This document shows, piece after piece, positions 3,467 through 32,765 of a stretch of 32,765 bases of DNA. Every line of letters begins with the position of its first letter. Position 1 is the stretch's first letter. Where the stretch lies: assembly GCA_029865675.1 (NCBI GenBank), contig JARXAU010000079.1:1-32765 (forward strand). Reading direction: 5' to 3'. The DNA comes from Rhodoferax sp. (GTDB taxonomy: Bacteria; Pseudomonadota; Gammaproteobacteria; Burkholderiales; Burkholderiaceae_C). Under the pieces are notes generated by a model. That model saw nothing but the letters and a program-made list of their open reading frames with translations. It had not been told where the DNA came from and made no database searches. The translations under genes and the position numbers were made by a program.

Positions 3467-4192
3467 ATGCAACGCATCCTCCACACCCTGCTTCTTGCCC
3501 TCTTGACCACGCTCAGCGTAAGCGCACTCGCGCAAGAGGCCACTATCCGCAAAAACATCGCCGCGCGCCTGCCCCAGCTCAAGGCCATTGACGAGGTGCG
3601 CAAGACCGATGTGCCCGGCCTCTACGAGCTGCGCGTGAACGGCTCCGACATTTATTACACCGACGCGCAGGGCAACTACCTGATAGAAGGCAGCCTGATA
3701 GACACCCGCAGCCAGCGCAATCTGACCGAAGAACGGGTGGAAAAACTCACCGCCATCCCGTTTGACAGCTTGCCGCTTAAAGATGCGTTTACCATGGTGC
3801 GCGGCACTGGTGAACGCAAGATGGCGGTGTTTGAAGACCCCAACTGCGGCTACTGCAAGCGCTTTGAGCGCGACTTGCAAAAGGTGGACAACGTCACGGT
3901 CTACTTTTTCTTGTATCCCATTCTGGGGGCAGATTCCACAGAGAAAACCAAAGCCATCTGGTGCGCCAAAGACCGCACGCTGGCGTGGCAAGACTGGATG
4001 CTGCGCGACCAGGTGCCGCCGGCCGCCGCTGCCATGTGCGACACCAGCCCCATCACACGCAACGTGGCGCTGGGGCGCAAACACAAAATCACCGGCACGC
4101 CCACCCTGCTGTTTACCAACGGCGCGCGCGTGCCCGGCGCGGTGGACACCAAAAAGATAGAACAATTGCTGGCTGAGGCCTCCAAAGGCTGA
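3467..4192 (+). CDS. dsbC: DsbC-like periplasmic thiol:disulfide interchange protein
   Basis: Signal peptide; DsbC dimerisation-like N-terminus; active-site FEDPNCGYCKRFE and GTPTLLFTNGARVPGAV. Confidence 0.9.
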   Translation: MQRILHTLLLALLTTLSVSALAQEATIRKNIAARLPQLKAIDEVRKTDVPGLYELRVNGSDIYYTDAQGNYLIEGSLIDTRSQRNLTEERVEKLTAIPFDSLPLKDAFTMVRGTGERKMAVFEDPNCGYCKRFERDLQKVDNVTVYFFLYPILGADSTEKTKAIWCAKDRTLAWQDWMLRDQVPPAAAAMCDTSPITRNVALGRKHKITGTPTLLFTNGARVPGAVDTKKIEQLLAEASKG

Positions 4193-6045
4193 TGCGCCCG
4201 GCCCCCGCCGCACCCTGGGCGGTGCACTACCACGTCGAAGCCGCCAGCCTGCACGCCCACCTGTGGCGCGTGACCATGACTATCGCCCAGCCCGCCGCCC
4301 TGCAAGCCCTGCGTTTGCCGGTGTGGATTCCGGGCAGCTACATGGTGCGCGAGTTTTCCAAGCACCTGCAGCACTTGCAATGCCGCCAGACCGGCCACGA
4401 TGTGGCCGCCACGCAGACTGACAAAGCCACCTGGCAAGTGGCTTGCGAGAGCGGCCAGCCCCTGCAAGTGCAATACGAGGTGTACGCCTTGGACAACTCG
4501 GTGCGCACCGCATGGCTGGACACGGCGCGCGGCTTTTTCAACGCCACCAGCCTGTGCCTGATGGCCGAGGGCGGCACCGACCAGCCCCACGCGCTGGACC
4601 TGGTGCGCCATACCGGCATGGCAGATTGGAGCGTAGCCACCGGCTTGCCTGCCGTGGATACAGACACAAGTGGTTTTGGCCGCTACCAAGCCGCCCACTA
4701 CGACGAACTGGCCGACTGCCCGGTAGAAATGGGTGCCTTCTGGAGCGGCACGTTTACCGCCTGCGGCGTGCCGCACCGCCTGGTGGTGGCCGGGGCCTTG
4801 CCCTCGTTTGATGGTGCGCGCCTGCTGCGCGACACGCAAAAAATCTGCGAAACCCAGTTGCGCTTTTGGCACGCCGAAGGCGACGCACACGCCACGCACC
4901 TGGCCGCTAAAGCGCCGTTTGCCCACTACGTTTTTCTGCTCAACGCCGTGGACGACAGCTACGGCGGGCTGGAGCACCGCAACTCCACCGCGCTGATCGC
5001 CGCCCGGCGCGACCTGCCGCGCCTGGAGGACGCCAAAACCAGCGAGGGCTACACCACGCTCTTGGGCCTGATCAGCCACGAGTACTTTCACACCTGGAAC
5101 GTCAAGCGCCTGCGCCCGGCCGAATTTGCCCGCTACGACTACGCGCAAGAAAACTACACTGAGTTGCTGTGGTTTTTTGAGGGCTTTACCAGCTACTACG
5201 ACGACTTGCTGCTGCGCCGCGCCGGGCTGATTGACGACGCCATCTACTTCAAACTGCTCACCAAAACCGCTAACCAAGTGCTGCAAACCCCCGGGCGCGC
5301 GGTGCAAACCGTGGCCCAGGCCAGCTTTGATGCCTGGGTGAAGTACTACCGCCAAGACGAAAACACCCCCAACGCCACGGTGAGCTACTACACCAAAGGC
5401 GCGCTGGTGGCCCTGTGCCTGGACCTGAGCCTGCGCGCCCACCGCACCGCAAGCCGACAGGCCTTCGCCCCTGCCGACGCCGCGCCAGCCCCCGTCACGC
5501 TGGACACCGTTACGCTTGACACCATCCTGCGCGGCCTGTGGCAGCGCTGCGCAGGTGGCCCCATGGCAGAGGCCGACCTGCTGGCCGTCTTGCACGAGCA
5601 CACCGGGCGCAGCTGGGCCAAAGAAATCAAAGCCTGGGTGCACAGCACGGCTGAGCTGCCGCTCAAAACCCTGCTGCAAGCCCAAGGCCTGCAAGTCCAC
5701 GAAGACCTGGCGCAGATGGCCCAGCGCCTAGGCCTGCGAGTGGCAGACGCCAACGGCACGGTCACCGTCAAAGCCGTGCTGCGCGGCGGCGCGGCTGAGA
5801 CCGCAGGCTTTGCCGCCGGTGACGAATGGCTGGGCGTGGACGTAGGCGCGCGCGGCCAGGGCGGATCGTGGCGGCTCAACAAGCTCGACGACCTGGCGCT
5901 GCTCTTGGGCCCCGAGCACCGCTTCAGCGCCCTGGTGTCCCGCGACAAACGCATGTTGCGCCTACCCTTGCGGCTGCCGCAGAAGGTGACGACTTGGCGG
6001 ATTGGGAATGCGGGGTGGGTGACGGGGGGGTGGCCTGGGGGTTGA
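4192..6045 (+). CDS. M61 family metallopeptidase (glycyl aminopeptidase type) with C-terminal PDZ domain
   Basis: HEYFHTWNVKRLRP (HExxH zinc motif), N-terminal WIPGSYMVREFSKHLQ, PDZ-like C-terminus. Confidence 0.93.
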   Translation: MRPAPAAPWAVHYHVEAASLHAHLWRVTMTIAQPAALQALRLPVWIPGSYMVREFSKHLQHLQCRQTGHDVAATQTDKATWQVACESGQPLQVQYEVYALDNSVRTAWLDTARGFFNATSLCLMAEGGTDQPHALDLVRHTGMADWSVATGLPAVDTDTSGFGRYQAAHYDELADCPVEMGAFWSGTFTACGVPHRLVVAGALPSFDGARLLRDTQKICETQLRFWHAEGDAHATHLAAKAPFAHYVFLLNAVDDSYGGLEHRNSTALIAARRDLPRLEDAKTSEGYTTLLGLISHEYFHTWNVKRLRPAEFARYDYAQENYTELLWFFEGFTSYYDDLLLRRAGLIDDAIYFKLLTKTANQVLQTPGRAVQTVAQASFDAWVKYYRQDENTPNATVSYYTKGALVALCLDLSLRAHRTASRQAFAPADAAPAPVTLDTVTLDTILRGLWQRCAGGPMAEADLLAVLHEHTGRSWAKEIKAWVHSTAELPLKTLLQAQGLQVHEDLAQMAQRLGLRVADANGTVTVKAVLRGGAAETAGFAAGDEWLGVDVGARGQGGSWRLNKLDDLALLLGPEHRFSALVSRDKRMLRLPLRLPQKVTTWRIGNAGWVTGGWPGG

Positions 6046-6091
6046 GGCGGGGCATCCGATTCCGCTTAGTTCGATAAAGCAAGGACAAAAA

Positions 6092-6105
6092 GCTACACTT
6101 GTAGC
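6092..6105. promoter_or_regulatory. candidate autoregulatory operator of the toxin-antitoxin module
   Basis: Perfect inverted repeat GCTACA-CT-TGTAGC, ending 22 bp before the antitoxin ATG. Confidence 0.5.
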
Positions 6106-6127
6106 AAACTGCTTCAAGGAGATAGCC

Positions 6128-6352
6128 ATGGGAATGCCCGTACGGATCGACAGCGACTTGTATGACCAAGCCAAAGCGCATGCAAACGCAGAGCGGCGCA
6201 CTATTGCCGGTCAGATAGAGTTTTGGGCGTTGATCGGTAAGGCCGCCTTGGACAACCCGGATTTGCCCATCGACTTTGTGCGGGACCTTTTGCTTGCCAA
6301 GGCCGAAGGCAAGTCGCTCGCCACTCCGTTTGTGCCTCAGGGTCAAGGCTGA
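6128..6352 (+). CDS. ParD-like type II antitoxin
   Basis: 74 aa: PVRIDSDLYDQAKAHANAERRTIAGQIEFWALIGKAALDNPDLP, ribbon-helix-helix ParD-like antitoxin pattern; overlaps the toxin start (TGATG). Confidence 0.8.
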   Translation: MGMPVRIDSDLYDQAKAHANAERRTIAGQIEFWALIGKAALDNPDLPIDFVRDLLLAKAEGKSLATPFVPQGQG

Positions 6353-6633
6353 TGGCCGCAGTGCCTGTTGTGGTTACCCAGTCGACTGTATTTGCTAGGG
6401 CCTACAAAAAACTACACCCCCATCAAAAGCAAGATGTGGATTCGGCGGTGGACGCAATCGCGTCGGACCCGCTTCTTGGCGATGCCAAGCGAGGCGATCT
6501 TGCCGGCGTTTATGTATACAAGTTCAAAAGCCAAAGCCAGTTGGTTCTGCTCGCCTATGAGTTCGATCCGAAGACGCGCCATTTGTTACTACTTGGCTCC
6601 CATGAAAACTTCTATCGGGAACTCAAGCGCTAA
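6352..6633 (+). CDS. type II toxin, RelE/ParE superfamily
   Basis: 93 aa: TVFARAYKKLHPHQKQDVDSAVDAIASDPLLGDAKRGDLAGVYVYKFKSQSQLVLLAYEFDPKTRHLLLLGSHENFYRELKR, typical RelE/ParE fold pattern; coupled to an upstream antitoxin. Confidence 0.82.
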   Translation: MAAVPVVVTQSTVFARAYKKLHPHQKQDVDSAVDAIASDPLLGDAKRGDLAGVYVYKFKSQSQLVLLAYEFDPKTRHLLLLGSHENFYRELKR

Positions 6634-7186
6634 GCCGGTCTTGCAACGGCCCAGCAGATGGCAGCCATCCGCTAACCAGGGAGTGTGCCTGCTGCCCTGG
6701 CCAGCTTCTGCTGCGCATCAACAGCAAAAAGTTGCCTACTCTGGGCGGCCTTGGGCTAAATCAAACGGCCATTGCAATGGCCCTCGGTTTCAAAGACTCT
6801 ACGTTTGACAATGACCGGAATGCAGCGATAGCGGACATTGAACTTAAAAAATCGCATGTGACGGGTGGGCCAGGAGTGGGCCTTGTTTCTGCCCTGCTTC
6901 CATGTCACGGATAAATGGCGATCGGAGCGTACTTCTAAATCTAAACAACTTGCGACGACTTGAAAGCAGAAGCCGACCGGAGCAATATATAAAAACAAAT
7001 AACATTAATTAAACATTTTTTATATTAAAATCGTATATAAATTCAAATATTGTATTTTTTATAGTAATTATTGTGACACATTAATACCGACAATAGCTAC
7101 TTGGGAGCGGGGTAGCAACCCTCCCAAAAACCGCGATAAATCAATCACCTTTTATTTTTTAAGACTTACCATGAGAGACAAATGTA

Positions 7187-8425
7187 ATGACCAAAATTTC
7201 TGACAGCGATCGCGGTGGATTAGTCAGTAGCGTTGACACTATTGATCCAGCCTCTGACCGAAGAGAGTTTTTGACGAAAGCAAGCCAACTCATTGGCTCC
7301 TTAGCCGCCCCCGGCTTAGTCGGTTTGAGCACACTTGGCGCCTCCGATGAGGCAATGGCATGGGGGCCATGGCACGTTGCTCGGATCTTTTTCGACCGGA
7401 CGGAAGGTTCTAATGGCTGGTGGATGAATGAAATGTTTCGCGCGGGCGGGCGGACTTATGTCGACAAATGGGAGGTAGTTTCAATGAACTGGAGGAATTC
7501 AAATGACGCCAAGTGGAAAGACGGCGATGTAAGTGTTTATTCTGCGATGGATTCGGGAGGACAAGTGCAGCGATTTGCCTACTGGAAATTTAATTTTAAT
7601 ACATATAGAGATAGCTACGGTCGCAAAGATTTAAGAGCTCAATCAATCAGTATGAGTTACAACAATCAGCGGGTATTTCTGAATTTAAATTGGAATGGAT
7701 CTGATTATTACAACCGTGGATTATCTATTTTTCAGCAGTTTAGACTTCCATTGGCGTGGGTCCTACTTTTTAATTTTTGGACCAAGAAGCCCACCATTCC
7801 AGGAGTACCGGCTAATACCCCCATCGGCAGAGTAGTTAAAACGAGTATTGGAGCGTTTTCCATGTTTTTTAGACAGGTTGAGTACACAGTTACTCAGCTG
7901 TATCCAGGTTATCTGGATGTTAACGGTGATTGGCAACTAACCGTGACAAATGGACGTTGTGATGCACTACCAACTCCGATAGTAAATACCTACGTCGTCG
8001 TACAGGCATTTCAAGCCGATGGCACATGGGGAAGTTTCTGCTACCCAAAGGCTGCTTTTGATGCTTTGGCGAAAACGGAGGCGGGAGCCTCGATTACACA
8101 AACCGTGACCACGGAGCTAGCCAAATTAGCGCAATATTGCACCAGTTTTCAGACCAGTGTAGGCGGTACGGGATTTGGAACTATCACAGCTGTCCTTGGA
8201 GCCGGATGGGTCGCTTCTCAAGACCAAAATGCACAACAACAGCAATATGCTATTTACAGCGGAATTGGTCTTGCTGTAGTTGGGGTTGCTTTCACGGGCT
8301 ACGGTATTTTTACAGGACGACAAGCAATAATGATGACTGGTACAGCACTGTTACAACGATTCGCGACGCCAGTGTTAGCTGCCATCCTAGTCCCTGCTAA
8401 TTCCGATTCTGGCTGGGGATCTTAA
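7187..8425 (+). CDS. Tat-signal orphan protein of unknown function with hydrophobic C-terminus
   Basis: 412 aa ORF in AT-richer DNA; Tat motif DRREFLTK followed by a hydrophobic stretch and AMA|WG candidate cleavage site; Trp/Tyr/Phe-rich middle; C-terminal hydrophobic segments IYSGIGLAVVGVAFTGYGIF and TPVLAAILVP. No family recognised. Confidence 0.7.
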   Translation: MTKISDSDRGGLVSSVDTIDPASDRREFLTKASQLIGSLAAPGLVGLSTLGASDEAMAWGPWHVARIFFDRTEGSNGWWMNEMFRAGGRTYVDKWEVVSMNWRNSNDAKWKDGDVSVYSAMDSGGQVQRFAYWKFNFNTYRDSYGRKDLRAQSISMSYNNQRVFLNLNWNGSDYYNRGLSIFQQFRLPLAWVLLFNFWTKKPTIPGVPANTPIGRVVKTSIGAFSMFFRQVEYTVTQLYPGYLDVNGDWQLTVTNGRCDALPTPIVNTYVVVQAFQADGTWGSFCYPKAAFDALAKTEAGASITQTVTTELAKLAQYCTSFQTSVGGTGFGTITAVLGAGWVASQDQNAQQQQYAIYSGIGLAVVGVAFTGYGIFTGRQAIMMTGTALLQRFATPVLAAILVPANSDSGWGS

Positions 8426-8609
8426 GAGGTTTTTAAAAACAAGGCACCGAGTTGCCCGCATATTTGTAATTTTCGTAGCATTAACTTCAAAAACTTGATT
8501 CCGATGGATGATTAAACGGAGTTAATGTCTTTTTTTATTTAAACAGGTCTGCAGCAGTTAATTCAAACACATGCATCAAATAGTATTTTTATTTTATTAC
8601 TATTAAAAT

Positions 8610-9305
8610 ATGACTAATAAATACGAGTCTTGGCAATTACTATTATTTATTGGGATGATCGTTGGTATATTTTTTGGTATCTTGCAATTATCTTCGGGTA
8701 CTCCAATTGTAATCATTGAGTCCCGTCCTGTCAGCAATGATTTTCCATGGCATATGGCGTCGCAAAAGACTCACCAGACTGTCGAAGCAAGTGCTCCGTC
8801 AGAAAATGTAGTTAATGCAAGCTCCTTGGAGCAGATTCATTCTGATGTTGCAGACATGCCAATTTCGATACGTAAGCAAGCCCTAGAGAACATGCGGAAA
8901 GCACACTTCAGCGAGGCGTGGAGTTACGTAAATGCCCGTCATCTTTGCCTTTCTGGCTCAGTTTTTAGTTCAGAGCAGGGCTGCGAAATGACGGATGACA
9001 TGGCACAAGATGACGCGCAGGCTCTGATGTTGTTGCAAAGTGCGGCCGACCGATCCATTCCTGAAGCTGAGATGGCGCTGGCCCAATGGTGGATCTCGGA
9101 CTTTTCCCGCAAAATTCCAGGGCTTGGTGGTTGGGAGTTGGGTGTCCCCGCGTCTGCAGAAACCATATCAACTGACGAAGCCCAGCGACGTTTGGATGCA
9201 CAACTGGCACAACGTAAGGCGCTCGACGCTTTAACTTCAGCGGCACCGCACAATCCGGCGGCGGCGGTAAGGCTGGAGGAACTAAAGGCTGCTTGGGGCT
9301 ACTAG
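8610..9305 (+). CDS. hypothetical membrane-anchored protein with Sel1-like segment
   Basis: N-terminal TM (WQLLLFIGMIVGIFFGILQL); DDAQALMLLQSAADRSIPEAEMALAQWWIS resembles a Sel1/TPR-like repeat. Confidence 0.6.
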   Translation: MTNKYESWQLLLFIGMIVGIFFGILQLSSGTPIVIIESRPVSNDFPWHMASQKTHQTVEASAPSENVVNASSLEQIHSDVADMPISIRKQALENMRKAHFSEAWSYVNARHLCLSGSVFSSEQGCEMTDDMAQDDAQALMLLQSAADRSIPEAEMALAQWWISDFSRKIPGLGGWELGVPASAETISTDEAQRRLDAQLAQRKALDALTSAAPHNPAAAVRLEELKAAWGY

Positions 9306-9700
9306 GAGCACGTCCAGCGCCCTCCGCTCGAGGGTGTCGCTTCAGTGATTACCGGTCTGACGCATCTTGTAACTGCGTCAAAGGCAAGGCAACACCTTTC
9401 GACGCCCGATACATAACGCAACAGCATGGCCGATCGTGCTGCAGCACCGCCTTCACTAGCCACAACACGCAGTTGACTAATGCTCCTGCGTTGCCAATTG
9501 CGTTAAGAAAGGTGATGACCGCTACCAGCCTAATGCGGTCTTGCGGCAAGAGTTAGCCAGTGAACGCTCCTAGCCCTGCACGGCCAGCCTTGGCACTTTT
9601 TTTTGCCCCTGGAGATGCACTATGAACTTCCATTGGCCCACTGATTTTTGCGCAATGTGCGTGCGTGTCGTCGCTGCATTTTTGGACCTGTACCTCCCAC

Positions 9701-10495
9701 CTACTTCCCCGTAAACCGCGCCGCCCGCTTCTCCAAAAACGCCGTCACACCCTCAATGTAATCATGCGTGGCGCCCATGGCGGACTGGGTGTCGCGCTCC
9801 ACGTCCAGGTGCGCGCTAAGTGAGCGGGTGCTGGCGCCTTGCAGCAGGGCGCGGGTGGCCACCAGGGCGGTGGTGGGCATGGTGGCCAGGCGCTCGGCCA
9901 GGGCCAGGGCGGAGGCCAGGGGGTCTTCGGCCACGTCCCAAATCATGCCCCACTCTTTGGCTTGGGGCGCGGGCAGTTTGTCGCCGGTCATGGCCAGGGC
10001 CAGGGCGCGCGCCAGGCCCAAGCGTTCCACCAGCAGCCAGCTGCCGCCCGCGTCGGGCACCAGGCCGATTTTGCTAAAGGCCTGGATAAAGCTGGCCGTG
10101 GGTGCGGCAATGGCAATGTCGCAGGCCATGGCCAGGCTGGCGCCCGCACCGGCGGCCACGCCGTTGACGGCGGCAATACATGGCATGCGCAGCGACTGCA
10201 GGCGCCGGGTGGTGGGGTTAAAGGCCTGGTCGATCACCGGGCCGGGGTCGGCGCGCTGCACCATGTCCGGGCCGGGTGTGAAGTCAAAGTCCGCCAAATC
10301 TGCCCCGGCGCAAAAGCCCCGGCCCGCGCCGGTGATGACGCAGGCGCGTATCGCCGGGTCAGCCTCTGCCCGGTCCAGCGCGGCCCACAGGTCGTGGTGC
10401 ATGGTGCGAGTGAACGCGTTGAGCGAGGCGGGGCGGTTGAGCGTAATGAGCGCCACATTGGCGCGCGCTTCAAACAATACGGTGCGGTCGGTCAT
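9701..10495 (-). CDS. enoyl-CoA hydratase/isomerase (crotonase family, PaaG-like)
   Basis: ACVITGAGRGFCAGADL and PCIAAVNGVAAGAGASLAMACDIAIA...KIGLVPDAGGSWLL crotonase signatures. ATG at 10495 chosen over ORF-track 10585. Confidence 0.9.
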   Translation of the reverse strand: MTDRTVLFEARANVALITLNRPASLNAFTRTMHHDLWAALDRAEADPAIRACVITGAGRGFCAGADLADFDFTPGPDMVQRADPGPVIDQAFNPTTRRLQSLRMPCIAAVNGVAAGAGASLAMACDIAIAAPTASFIQAFSKIGLVPDAGGSWLLVERLGLARALALAMTGDKLPAPQAKEWGMIWDVAEDPLASALALAERLATMPTTALVATRALLQGASTRSLSAHLDVERDTQSAMGATHDYIEGVTAFLEKRAARFTGK

Positions 10496-10583
10496 GGGGG
10501 TTCCTGCGAGGCGGCTGTGCCGGTAAACATGGGCTGGGGAGCGCTGGTTATAGTGGGGTTTTGACCACCAGGCGCGCGCCATC

Positions 10584-11363
10584 ATGACTTACGAATGCAT
10601 CACCACCCGTACCGAAGGCGACAAAGTCGTCATCATCACGCTCAACCGCGCCAAGCAGCTCAACGCGCTCAATGACCAGTTGATGGATGAACTCGGCCAC
10701 GCCCTCAAAGCATTTGACGCCGACCCCGCCCTGGGCTGCGCGGTGATTACCGGCAGCGAAAAAGCCTTTGCTGCGGGCGCCGACATTGCCGCCATGGCCA
10801 AATACAGCTTTGCCGATGTTTATGGCGCAGACTACATCTCGCGCAACTGGGAAACCATCCGCAGTATCCGCAAACCGGTAATCGCCGCCGTGAGCGGCTT
10901 TGCCCTGGGTGGCGGCTGCGAGCTGGCCATGATGTGCGACTTCATCATCGCCGCCGACAACGCCCGCTTTGGCCAGCCCGAGATCAAGCTCGGCGTCATC
11001 CCCGGCGCCGGTGGCACCCAGCGCCTGCCGCGCGCCGTGGGCAAGGCCAAAGCCATGGACATGGCCCTGACCGGGCGCATGATGGACGCGGCAGAAGCCG
11101 AACGCGCCGGCCTGGTCAGCCGCGTGGTGCCGCTGGCCACCCTGATGGACGAGGCGCTGGCCGCAGCGCTGACGATTGCGGGCTTCTCGCAAATCGCCAC
11201 ACGCGCCGCCAAAGAGAGCGTCAACCGCGCGTTTGAGAGCGGCCTGTCCGACGGAGTCATGTTCGAGCGCCGCCTGTTCCACGCCTTGTTCGCCACCGCC
11301 GACCAAAAAGAAGGCATGGACGCCTTCCTGGCCAAGCGCGCAGCGGTGTTTACCCACCAGTGA
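10584..11363 (+). CDS. enoyl-CoA hydratase
   Basis: [20 protein letters not shown] and [54 protein letters not shown]. Confidence 0.95.
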
Positions 11364-22360: not shown

Positions 22361-22450
22361 TTTCCAAGTTTTGAGCCCGACGCCGTTTACGCCATACCGT
22401 CAGCAAATAGCCCTCATTTTTTACGAAAACACCGATTGTCAAAGGACGCC

Positions 22451-25393
22451 ATGCAAACCCTTACTACCCTTTCCCCTGCCGGAGCTGTGGCCATGCCCTT
22501 AGGAGCCCATGTTTCTGAGTCGGGCAGCGTTAGTGCTTTGGCCAGCTACCAGATTATTCGGCGCAACGGTGCGGTGGTGCCCTTCGAGCCTAACAAGATC
22601 GCTGTCGCCATCATGAAGGCCTCATTGGCGGTTCACGGAACCCAGGGCGCTGCCTCTGCCAGTGTCCGGGAAAATGTCGAGGCCCTCACCCAGCAGGTGA
22701 TGCGCGCACTCATGCGCTCGCGACCAGGCGGCGGCACCTTCCACATCGAAGACGTACAAGACCAGGTCGAACTCGGCTTGATGCGCGCAGGCAACCATGA
22801 AGTGGCGCGGGCTTATGTGCTGTACCGCGAGCGCCGAACCCAAGAACGCGCAAAACAGCTTGCCGACATGACGCCCGTTGCTCCGACTATCCATGTGCTG
22901 GACCGCGGTCAGCGCGTGGCGCTGGACATGAACGCGATGACGCAGCGCATCGAAACAGCGTGTTCCGGTTTGGGGGCAGACGTTCAAGCCGAACCCATCA
23001 TCGCCGAAACCATGCGCAATTTGTACGACGGTGTGCCCATGGACGAAGTGTTCAAAGCCTCGATCCTGGCGGCGCGCACATTGATTGAGAAAGATCCGGA
23101 CTACACCTACGCCACCGCACGCCTGTTGTTCCACACGATCTCTCGTGAAGTCTTGGGCCGCGATGTTGTCAGCGCTGACATGCAGGCAGCTTATGCAGAC
23201 TATTTTCCTGACTGTATTAAAAAGGCCGTGCGTTACGAGTTGCTCGACGAAAAGATGTTGCAGTTTGACCTGGTGCGTTTGGGAGCAGCGCTCAAGGCCG
23301 AGCGGGACTTGCAGTTTGATTACCTGGGTTTGCAAACTCTGTATGACCGCTATTTCCTGCACCATGCCAAAGCACGCATTGAGCTGCCGCAAGTCTTTTT
23401 CATGCGCGTTGCCATGGGCTTGTCGCTCAATGAGACCGACCGGGAAGCCCGCGCCATCGAGTTCTATGAAGTGCTGTCGTCCTTTGACTTCATGTCGAGC
23501 ACGCCCACGCTTTTCAACAGCGGCGGTCTGCGTTCCCAGCTGTCGAGCTGCTACTTGACCACGGTGCCCGACGATCTGGACGGCATTTACGAGTCCATCA
23601 AAGAAAACGCCTTGCTGTCCAAGTTTGCCGGTGGCCTGGGCAACGATTGGACGCGTGTGCGCGCTCTGGGTTCGCGCATCAAGGGCACCAACGGCGAGTC
23701 GCAAGGCGTCGTGCCCTTCCTCAAAGTGGTTAACGACACGGCAGTAGCGGTCAACCAGGGCGGCAAGCGCAAGGGCGCGGTGTGCACTTACCTGGAAACC
23801 TGGCACCTGGACATCGAAGAGTTTCTGGAGCTGCGCAAAAACACCGGCGACGACCGCCGCCGCACTCACGACATGAACACGGCCAATTGGGTTCCAGATC
23901 TGTTCATGCGCCGCGTGATGGAAAAAGGCCAGTGGACACTGTTTTCGCCGTCCAATGTGCCGGATTTGCACGACAAGTTTGGTGCTGATTTCGAGAAGGC
24001 TTATGTGGCTTACGAGTTGCAAGCGGCCCAGGGCCTCATCAAACCCTCGCGCGTGGTAGAGGCGGCCGACCTGTGGCGCAAGATGCTCACCATGCTGTTT
24101 GAGACCGGCCACCCTTGGATCACCTTCAAGGACGCCTGCAATGTGCGCTCGCCCCAGCAACACGCCGGTGTGGTGCACTCCAGTAACTTGTGTACCGAGA
24201 TTACGCTCAACACTTCGGACACCGAGACCGCAGTGTGCAACCTGGGCTCGGTTAACTTGCTGCAGCACTTGAAAGACGGCGAGAACGGCAAGGTGCTGGA
24301 TCACGACAAGCTCAAGCGCACCATCACCACGGCCATGCGCATGCTCGATAACGTCATCGAAATCAATTACTACGCGGTCAAGAAGGCGCGCGATTCGAAC
24401 GTGCGCCACCGCCCGGTGGGCCTTGGCATCATGGCGTTCCAAGACAGCTTGTACGAGCTGCGCATTCCCTACGCCAGCGAAGCCGCTGTGGCTTTTGCCG
24501 ACACGTCCATGGAAGCCGTGAGCTACTACGCCTACTGGGCGTCTACCGACTTGGCGCGTGAGCGCGGTTGCTATTCCAGCTTCAAAGGCTCTTTGTGGGA
24601 CCAGGGCATATTGCCCTTTGACACGCTGGACCTGCTGGCCAAGGCCCGCGGCGGCTATGTGGAAGTGGACCGCTCCAGCACCATGGACTGGGACGCGCTG
24701 CGCCGCAAGATTGCCAAAGACGGCATGCGCAATTCCAACTGCGTGGCCATCGCCCCCACCGCGACCATCTCCAACATCATTGGCGTGGACGCGTCGATCG
24801 AGCCTTGCTTTGGCAACCTGTCGGTCAAGTCCAAGTAGTCGGGCGAGTTCACGGTCATCAACAGCTACCTGGTGCGCGACCTCAAGCGCGTTGGGCTGTG
24901 GGACGACGTGATGGTGATGGATCTGAAGCATTTCGATGGCTCGCTCAGCCCCATGGACCGCGTTCCAAACGAAATCAAACAGCTCTACGCCACCGCGTTT
25001 GAGGTGGAAACCCGCTGGCTGGTCGAAGCTGCAGCGCGCCGCCAAAAGTGGATCGACCAAGCGCAATCGCTGAATATTTATATGGCCGGCGCCTCGGGCA
25101 AAAAACTCGACGACACCTACAAGCTTGCTTGGGTGCGCGGTCTGAAAACCACCTACTACCTGCGCACCATGTCGGCCACCCATGCAGAGAAGTCCACGGT
25201 GAGTTCGGGGCGCATGAACTCGGTGTCGTCCGAGTCCGGCGTTGTCCTCGCTGGCGTCTCTGGCGCGCGATCCGTGTCATTGCTAGAAGCCGCGGCTGCA
25301 GCAGCCCAAGATCAAATGACAGCCAGCGCAACGGCCGCCACCGACATCAAATTTTGCGGAGTGGACGACCCCACTTGCGAGTCCTGCCAATAA
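22451..25393 (+). pseudogene. nrdA: ribonucleoside-diphosphate reductase alpha subunit, coding frame interrupted by in-frame TAG (24836-24838)
   Basis: ATP-cone N-terminus (YQIIRRNGAVVPFEPNKIAVAIMKA), SSCYLTTVPDDLDGIYESIKENALLSKFAGGLGNDW, then ...[46 protein letters not shown]...[17 protein letters not shown]...[12 protein letters not shown] in the same frame. Start may be 22436 (TTG). Could be an intact gene with a sequence error or readthrough rather than a pseudogene. Confidence 0.85.
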
Positions 25394-31108: not shown

Positions 31109-31726
31109 CTATTTTAGACCACGCAACAAGGCCAAATCGTTGGCGTCGAGCTGCCCCATTTTTCTCTGAATGATGCCGCCCTTCGCATTGAGGGTCACAG
31201 AAAAAGGTAGCCCTCCCGAAAGGTTCCCCAAGGCTTTGCTCAGTTCCGTGCCGCCAAAACCCGCCATAGCGACGGGGAATGCCAATGGATTGCGGGCCAG
31301 AAATGACAGCACCAAAGCGGGCTTGTCCACCGCCAAACCCAGCACTTGCCAGCCGTTAGCTTGATTTTGTTGAAAAAAGGCATTAATTAGCGGGAGTTCT
31401 TCCACGCATGGCGGGCACCATGTCGCCCAGAAATTAATCAGCAGTGGACGCCCTTGGAGTGATTGCATTGATAGCGCCCCGCCCGACGGTGTGCGCCACT
31501 TCAGATCCCAAAAGTCGGGAACGGCAGCGGTAACTGCGGGCGCTTCAGGTGGCATATTGCGCATCCAGGACGCGGTCATGCCTGCGCCCACCGCCGTGAT
31601 GGCAGCTCCCACCAGAATCGCTCGACGTGGTAAGCGCGCCAATGCCGCTTGTACCTCGCTGGTGTGGGCGCTCGGTTCGCCGGGCGGATGTTTAAACGCG
31701 GACTCAGGATCAAAGTGCTGGTTCAT
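31109..31726 (-). CDS. TlpA-like thioredoxin-family protein
   Basis: N-terminal TM; LLINFWATWCPPCVEELPLINAFFQQNQANGWQVLGLAVDK. Confidence 0.92.
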   Translation of the reverse strand: MNQHFDPESAFKHPPGEPSAHTSEVQAALARLPRRAILVGAAITAVGAGMTASWMRNMPPEAPAVTAAVPDFWDLKWRTPSGGALSMQSLQGRPLLINFWATWCPPCVEELPLINAFFQQNQANGWQVLGLAVDKPALVLSFLARNPLAFPVAMAGFGGTELSKALGNLSGGLPFSVTLNAKGGIIQRKMGQLDANDLALLRGLK

Positions 31727-32316
31727 GGGGATGTATTTTCCATCAGGCGTTGAAGGGCGGCCGCATCACCCCGGGGACTGCGGCCCCGGGAATCCGGGTG
31801 CAGGGCACCGCGGATATCGTCCAGGTCATAAACCATCAAGTGCACGCCCATGTTTTGTCCTAGCGTCTCGCTGCGGACATGCACGCTGAGTGCGTCCACC
31901 AGCGTGCCCTGAAAGCCCGGCACCGAGCGTGCTTCAAAGCGCACGCCCATATCTATCAGTGCGATTTCTGCCGCTTTCGAGTCTTCGCAAAACAGCTGCA
32001 GGTAGATGTCAGAGTTCCGGGTGGCGGTGCCGCGCCAGACCGCGCCGCCCAAATAGGGCTGGAAGCGCGCCAGTCTCTGCATCCACTCCAAGGCCAGTTC
32101 GCGCAGCGCGCGCAACTCTTGCGGCTGGGTGTCTGCACAGAACAGTGCGATGTATTCCTCGACCGCCGCTTCCACTTGGTCGTTGTCGGGCAAGCCGCCG
32201 CGCCCGCCCGCGCCGAGCTGTTTGGCGGCGCGGCGCTTGGCGGCGCCGTAGTCCAGACCCTCCTCCACAATCATCCGGGCTGCGGCTGCCGCGATCTCAG
32301 CTTGGTAACTTTCCAT
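31723..32316 (-). CDS. conserved hypothetical protein
   Basis: MESYQAEIAAAAARMIVEEGLDYGAAKRRAAKQLGAGGRGGLPDNDQVEAAVEEYIALF...; UspA-unrelated conserved betaproteobacterial-type protein; ATG 32316 chosen over ORF-track 32736, which is antisense to mpl. Confidence 0.8.
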   Translation of the reverse strand: MESYQAEIAAAAARMIVEEGLDYGAAKRRAAKQLGAGGRGGLPDNDQVEAAVEEYIALFCADTQPQELRALRELALEWMQRLARFQPYLGGAVWRGTATRNSDIYLQLFCEDSKAAEIALIDMGVRFEARSVPGFQGTLVDALSVHVRSETLGQNMGVHLMVYDLDDIRGALHPDSRGRSPRGDAAALQRLMENTSP

Positions 32317-32376
32317 GCGCGCATTGTGCCCGCCCGTGCCGGCAGGTGCCCCGGGGTGGGTGGCTAAACTCGCGCG

Positions 32377-32765
32377 ATGCATATTCATATATTGGGCATT
32401 TGCGGCACTTTCATGGGCGGTTTGGCGGCGCTGGCGCGTGAAGCGGGCCACCGGGTGACCGGTTGCGACGCCGGGGTCTACCCGCCCATGAGTGACCAGT
32501 TGCGTGCGTTGGGAATTGATCTGATTGAGGGTTTTGGCGCCGACCAGCTGGCGATCAAGCCCGATATGTTTGTGATTGGCAACACTGTGAGCCGCAGCCG
32601 CACAGAGGCCGGCGCGGCTAAGTTCCCGCTGATTGAAGCTATTTTGGACGCCGGTGCGCCCTACACCAGCGGCCCGCAGTGGCTCGCTGAACACGTCTTG
32701 CAGGGCCGCCACGTGCTGGCCGTGGCCGGTACCCATGGCAAAACCACCACCACCGCCATGCTGAC
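32377..32765 (+). CDS. mpl: UDP-N-acetylmuramate:L-alanyl-gamma-D-glutamyl-meso-diaminopimelate ligase (partial)
   Basis: Read directly: MHIHILGICGTFMGGLAALAREAGHRVTGCDAGVYPPMSDQLRALGIDLIEGF...VAGTHGKTTTTAML, Mur ligase ATP-binding motif. Open at window end. Confidence 0.95.
   Translation, partial: MHIHILGICGTFMGGLAALAREAGHRVTGCDAGVYPPMSDQLRALGIDLIEGFGADQLAIKPDMFVIGNTVSRSRTEAGAAKFPLIEAILDAGAPYTSGPQWLAEHVLQGRHVLAVAGTHGKTTTTAML

What the first reader, a model, noticed from the sequence alone, without database searches (positions are those of the whole stretch)
7187..8425. Tat-exported orphan protein with a hydrophobic C-terminal tail
Long n-region then DRREFLTK-ASQLIGSLAAPGLVGLSTLGASDEAMA|WGPWH fits a twin-arginine signal. 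The mature part is rich in Trp/Tyr/Phe (WWMNEMF, WKFNFNTYRDSYGRK, FLNLNWNGSDYYNRG) and contains few Cys; the C-terminus has a likely membrane-inserting hairpin (YSGIGLAVVGVAFTGYGIF...TGTALLQRFATPVLAAILVP). A Tat substrate folded before export, possibly with a membrane-active tail, and no family I recognise: candidate secreted effector, toxin or envelope protein.
Basis: partly seen in the sequence, partly recalled or inferred. Interest (0 to 1): 0.6.

Follow-up and report, generated by a model that had tools for sequence, protein, structure and literature searches.

The report
Orphan Tat-signal protein in variable island
A bacterium carries, in a foreign-looking stretch of DNA at a spot where its relatives keep other optional genes, a gene for a probably exported protein that resembles nothing in the databases searched; it is a real but isolated 'orphan' gene and its job can only be guessed at.

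Summary
The ORF is real: 412 aa, window 7187-8425 +, far longer than chance allows. Its N-terminus (SDRREFLTK, mild h-region, AMA|W) fits a Tat signal. No relative was found in Pfam, NCBIfam, PHROGs, PADLOC or PDB sequences, in plasmids, phages or IMG/VR, in two peptide-seed scans of GTDB genomes, or in searches of about 1,500 Pseudomonadota genomes including 103 of its genus: a singleton ORFan as far as these tools reach. It lies in a 3.65-kb low-G+C insertion (6046-9700) with a ParD/ParE pair and a second ORFan (8610-9305, one clear N-terminal TM helix), between convergent M61-peptidase and enoyl-CoA-hydratase genes. In relatives this junction is empty (G1194), holds a small gene (G797), or holds a giant cadherin-repeat protein with HlyC and type I secretion genes (G791, G1241): a variable cargo site. 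The 'membrane hairpin' is borderline (Kyte-Doolittle 1.59, 1.44). Structure prediction failed for the whole protein; residues 59-179 came out, at low confidence, as a beta meander without a significant fold match. Most likely a horizontally acquired, Tat-exported envelope protein, perhaps membrane-associated. A toxin or effector role is not excluded, but nothing specific supports it.

The parts
7187..8425 (+). Orphan ORF, 412 aa: predicted Tat signal peptide (residues 1-58), aromatic-rich probable all-beta domain (about 59-179), middle part, Gly-rich mildly hydrophobic C-terminal part (325-404)
   Evidence: AF2 domain model pLDDT 60, pTM 0.52; no homologue
7253..7279 (+). Twin-arginine motif codons S-D-R-R-E-F-L-T-K (residues 23-31)
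   Evidence: read directly from the sequence; fits S-R-R-x-F-L-K as described in PMC5539426
8252..8398 (+). Two mildly hydrophobic C-terminal segments (residues 356-374 and 386-404), borderline for membrane insertion
   Evidence: KD 1.59 and 1.44; Hessa-type sums positive
6990..7186 (+). A+T-rich upstream region (29% G+C in 7000-7149), possible promoter region of the orphan; the promoter-like match 6999-7026 is no better than chance
8610..9305 (+). Second ORFan, 231 aa: strong N-terminal TM helix (about residues 7-28), then a probably periplasmic domain, Sel1-like by eye only; possible partner
   Evidence: KD 2.42; no Pfam/NCBIfam/PHROG/PDB match and only chance-level genome hits
6128..6352 (+). 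ParD-like antitoxin of the insertion
   Evidence: PF11903, E 3e-21
6352..6633 (+). ParE-like toxin of the insertion
   Evidence: PF15781, E 9e-35; the pair occurs at 82% DNA identity elsewhere in G797 (C30)
6046..9700 (.). Variable segment between convergent flanking genes; G+C 26-61% in 150-base windows against about 65% around it
4192..6045 (+). Left flank: M61 family aminopeptidase
   Evidence: PF17899/PF05299; syntenic in relatives
9701..10585 (-). Right flank: enoyl-CoA hydratase (convergent)
   Evidence: PF00378, E 4.5e-58; next to the site in G791, G797, G1194, G1241

Best explanation
An ORFan accessory gene, acquired horizontally into a variable site, encodes a protein that folds in the cytoplasm, is exported by the Tat translocase and cleaved after AMA58. 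The mature protein (354 aa) then sits in the cell envelope: an aromatic-rich beta domain (about 59-179) would face the periplasm and bind a ligand, glycan or envelope partner, and the Gly-rich C-terminal part would associate with the inner membrane. The TM-anchored ORFan 184 bp downstream may work with it. Shown here: the ORF, the twin-arginine pattern, the lack of relatives, the insertion and the variable site. Inferred: export, processing, location, beta fold, ligand binding and partnership.
For: ORF far longer than chance. Good match to S-R-R-x-F-L-K with a low-hydrophobicity h-region and AxA site (motif per PMC5539426). The lineage has TatC (19 of 20 relatives). G+C 42-43% against about 65%, and absent from 103 genomes of the genus and about 1,500 of the phylum. 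The same junction is empty in G1194, carries a 119-aa ORF with a hydrophobic N-terminus in G797, and a giant cadherin-repeat protein with HlyC and type I secretion genes in G791 and G1241: other cargo at this site also concerns the cell surface. Residues 59-179 are predicted as long antiparallel strands.
Against: No homologue, so no test of purifying selection: function at all is not proven. Hydropathy of the tail is borderline. Models have low confidence (pLDDT 34.5 whole, 60 domain) and no significant fold match. tatC is missing from the incomplete own assembly.
Confidence: 0.45

Rival explanations
1. Soluble periplasmic protein (binding protein or enzyme), also Tat-exported, whose C-terminal hydrophobic segments are core helices, not membrane-embedded.
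For: KD values below the TM threshold; the survey of Tat tail anchors itself discards a candidate because its hydrophobic region belongs to a Rieske fold (PMC10924467).
Against: Three hydrophobic segments cluster in the last 90 residues and two come close to the threshold.
Confidence: 0.28
2. Tat-exported antagonism effector or toxin whose Gly-rich C-terminal part inserts into membranes, with the downstream TM-anchored ORFan as immunity or accessory protein.
For: Two adjacent ORFans in a cargo site; two or three mildly hydrophobic Gly-rich segments; neighbour has a clear TM anchor.
Against: No toxin, effector or PADLOC match; no trafficking domain or secretion-system gene beside it; Tat alone leaves it in the producer's periplasm; hydrophobicity weak.
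Confidence: 0.12
3. Long ORF without a present function: a decaying or recently formed reading frame in horizontally acquired A+T-rich DNA.
For: No relative anywhere searched; one genome only; modest codon-position contrast (G+C 0.51/0.48/0.42); parts of the insertion (6634-6990, 9306-9700) hold no convincing gene.
Against: An open frame of 416 codons where shuffles reach at most 196; a complete Tat-type signal peptide at its start is unlikely by chance.
Confidence: 0.09
4. Envelope protein exported by Sec rather than Tat, the twin arginine being incidental.
For: Some Sec signals carry paired arginines (PMC5539426).
Against: The motif beyond RR (x-F-L), the long n-region and the mild h-region all favour Tat.
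Confidence: 0.06

Closest known systems
[quoted passage not shown] cofactor-less examples in PMC10924467)
   Same: N-terminal Tat signal plus hydrophobic C-terminal region; some known members lack cofactors.
   Different: Known members have one C-terminal TM helix and mostly a recognisable globular family; here two or three borderline segments and no family.
Cofactor-less soluble Tat substrates (general knowledge: AmiA, AmiC, SufI)
   Same: Same kind of signal; few Cys, no metal-site motif noticed.
   Different: No sequence relation found to any known family.
Cadherin-repeat giant protein plus HlyC/ABC/HlyD/OEP type I secretion cluster at the same genomic site in G791 and G1241
   Same: Same junction; optional cargo that concerns the cell surface.
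   Different: Unrelated proteins, different export route.

Membership tests
Tat (twin-arginine) substrates | N-terminal S/T-R-R-x-F-L-K-like motif, mild h-region, AxA-like cleavage site | tested here: met
   SDRREFLTK at residues 23-31 (S/T position is D, K one position later), KD 1.41, AMA|W; by inspection, no SignalP or TatP run
Tat (twin-arginine) substrates | Host encodes the Tat translocase | tested here: inconclusive
   no TatC in the 70%-complete own assembly; present in 19 of 20 relatives
Tat (twin-arginine) substrates | Tat-dependent export | not testable with these tools
   needs a reporter fusion
Tat tail-anchored membrane proteins | Clear C-terminal transmembrane helix | tested here: inconclusive
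   KD 1.59 and 1.44; Hessa-type sums positive
Secreted effector or pore-forming toxin | Similarity to a characterised toxin or effector domain | tested here: not met
   no match in Pfam, NCBIfam, PADLOC, PHROGs or PDB sequences; no significant fold match for the beta domain
Secreted effector or pore-forming toxin | Toxicity or membrane damage | not testable with these tools
   needs expression in a laboratory strain

The most novel reading that the evidence does not exclude
A new two-gene module: a Tat-exported, folded protein with an aromatic beta domain and a Gly-rich membrane-active C-terminus, working with a TM-anchored periplasmic partner (8610-9305), as competition or phage-resistance cargo of a variable chromosomal site.
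Probability: 0.1. Interest if true: 0.65.

Novelty: new member of a known kind. Interest (0 to 1): 0.3.

Why it matters
As it stands it is one more ORFan with a predicted export signal, of which genomes hold many. It would matter if the tail does insert into the membrane, because Tat substrates with more than one C-terminal membrane segment would extend what the translocase is known to integrate, or if the pair proves to be a competition module. The variable site between the M61-peptidase and enoyl-CoA-hydratase genes is a useful place to look for further cargo in this genus.

Tried and rejected
Whole-protein AF2 without an alignment: pLDDT 34.5, unusable. Foldseek of the 59-179 model (pLDDT 60): best E 0.09 (PDB) and 0.065 (viral), low TM-scores; not interpreted. 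PDB sequence hit of the beta segment to a designed TIM barrel (E 0.0013, a 30-residue stretch): judged a chance similarity to a designed sequence. Weak genome hits (E 4.5e-4 to 0.05 per genome, over about 770 genomes) were inspected or listed: short, several with internal stops, in inconsistent regions; rejected as chance. Plasmid hits at E 2-6: chance. Weak hits of the neighbour ORF fall in the frames of what look like an outer-membrane efflux protein and an anti-sigma-type protein: rejected. Repeats around the insertion: only chance-level pairs, no att-like or IS-like ends. Promoter and terminator scans: no more than in shuffles. Paper searches gave background on Tat tail anchors and signals but nothing on this protein.

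Full report
The observation. The ORF at window 7187-8425 (+) is present as described, 412 aa from ATG. Its open frame of 416 codons compares with at most 196 in 300 shuffles of the surrounding A+T-rich stretch, so it is not a chance frame. Read directly, the N-terminus holds a 24-residue n-region, the pattern SDRREFLTK, a mild hydrophobic region (KD 1.41) and AMA|WGPW. This agrees with the S-R-R-x-F-L-K motif and the low hydrophobicity of Tat signals described in PMC5539426, although the S/T position is D and the K is one place late. The mature part is rich in W, Y and F (15.2% together) and has three Cys.

The tail. Residues 356-374 and 386-404 score 1.59 and 1.44 on the Kyte-Doolittle scale, with a third segment (325-343) at 1.25; the neighbour ORF's TM helix scores 2.42. 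A Hessa-type sum, with values from memory and an approximate positional weighting, gives positive values for all three and -1.15 for the neighbour's helix. The hairpin is therefore borderline, and no topology predictor was available.

Relatives. No profile match in Pfam, NCBIfam, PHROGs or PADLOC, nor with the protein cut into pieces; no meaningful PDB sequence match. Whole-genome searches covered 401 genomes of the family, 399 of the order, 369 of the class, 103 of the genus and 299 of the phylum, with some overlap: only the gene itself was found with confidence. Plasmids, phages, IMG/VR and the GTDB contigs gave nothing; the IMG/VR and GTDB scans rest on exact 8-residue seeds and would miss distant relatives. 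The gene is thus a singleton within reach of these tools.

Setting. The host assembly (G000) is 2.49 Mb in 242 contigs, about 70% complete. The ORF lies in a segment of low G+C (26-61% in 150-base windows) inside DNA of about 65%, between a DsbC-type/M61-peptidase gene pair and two enoyl-CoA hydratase genes followed by tRNA-Met. The segment also holds a ParD/ParE pair, which occurs elsewhere in G797 at 82% DNA identity, and a second ORFan at 8610-9305 with one clear TM helix.

The site in relatives. In G1194 (99% complete) the M61 and enoyl-CoA hydratase genes touch at their 3' ends (L062: stops at 732 and 745). In G797 about 490 bp between them encode a 119-aa ORF with a hydrophobic N-terminus. 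G791 has a relative of that ORF (68% identity) at the left edge of a 15-kb segment that also holds a 2433-aa protein with cadherin-like and Ig-type repeats, an ABC transporter, an HlyD-type fusion protein, an outer-membrane efflux protein, an HlyC-type acyltransferase and a DJ-1/PfpI protein. G1241 has the same kind of cluster, with HlyC confirmed, next to its enoyl-CoA hydratase gene; its contig ends before the M61 gene. G1166 and G1192 have the two flanking genes close together. This is a variable cargo site; no integrase, repeat or other sign of the mechanism of insertion was found.

Structure. AF2 without an alignment failed on the whole protein (pLDDT 34.5). For residues 59-179 the best of five models reached pLDDT 60 and pTM 0.52, an antiparallel beta meander, but the other four models scored 37-47, and Foldseek found no significant match. 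The beta character is a plausible lead only.

Function. The most economical reading is a Tat-exported envelope protein carried as optional cargo, possibly associated with the membrane through its C-terminus, perhaps acting with the downstream TM-anchored protein. Tat substrates with C-terminal anchors and no cofactor are known (PMC10924467), but those have a single helix. The toxin or effector reading is not excluded, has no specific support, and needs a way out of the producing cell that is not seen here. tatC is missing from the incomplete own assembly but present in 19 of 20 relatives.

Verdict. Real ORF, probably Tat-targeted, no known family, function open. Interest 0.3.

Noticed in passing
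L022 (G791:C7:45500-61500) and L063 (G1241:C44:1500-12655): At the same junction two relatives carry a type I secretion cluster with a giant cadherin-repeat protein and an HlyC-type acyltransferase (PF02794, E 2e-31 and 1e-28).
   Followed up: partly
window 6128-6633: ParD-like/ParE-like toxin-antitoxin pair in the insertion; its DNA recurs at 82% identity elsewhere in relative G797 (C30:6941-7494), so it seems to move independently.
   Followed up: partly
window 8610-9305: Second ORFan with a strong N-terminal TM helix; third-position G+C is 41% in its N-terminal half and 54% in its C-terminal half, which might mean a composite origin.
   Followed up: partly
window 22622-25183 (-) and 31723-32736 (-): Large minus-strand ORFs (853 and 337 aa) without a Pfam match at E 1e-4; the first overlaps an 800-codon plus-strand frame (22436-24838), so which strand is coding was not settled.
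   Followed up: no
window 31109-31726 (-): Redoxin-type protein with a paired arginine before its N-terminal hydrophobic stretch (LPRRAILVGAA), a possible second Tat-type signal.
   Followed up: no
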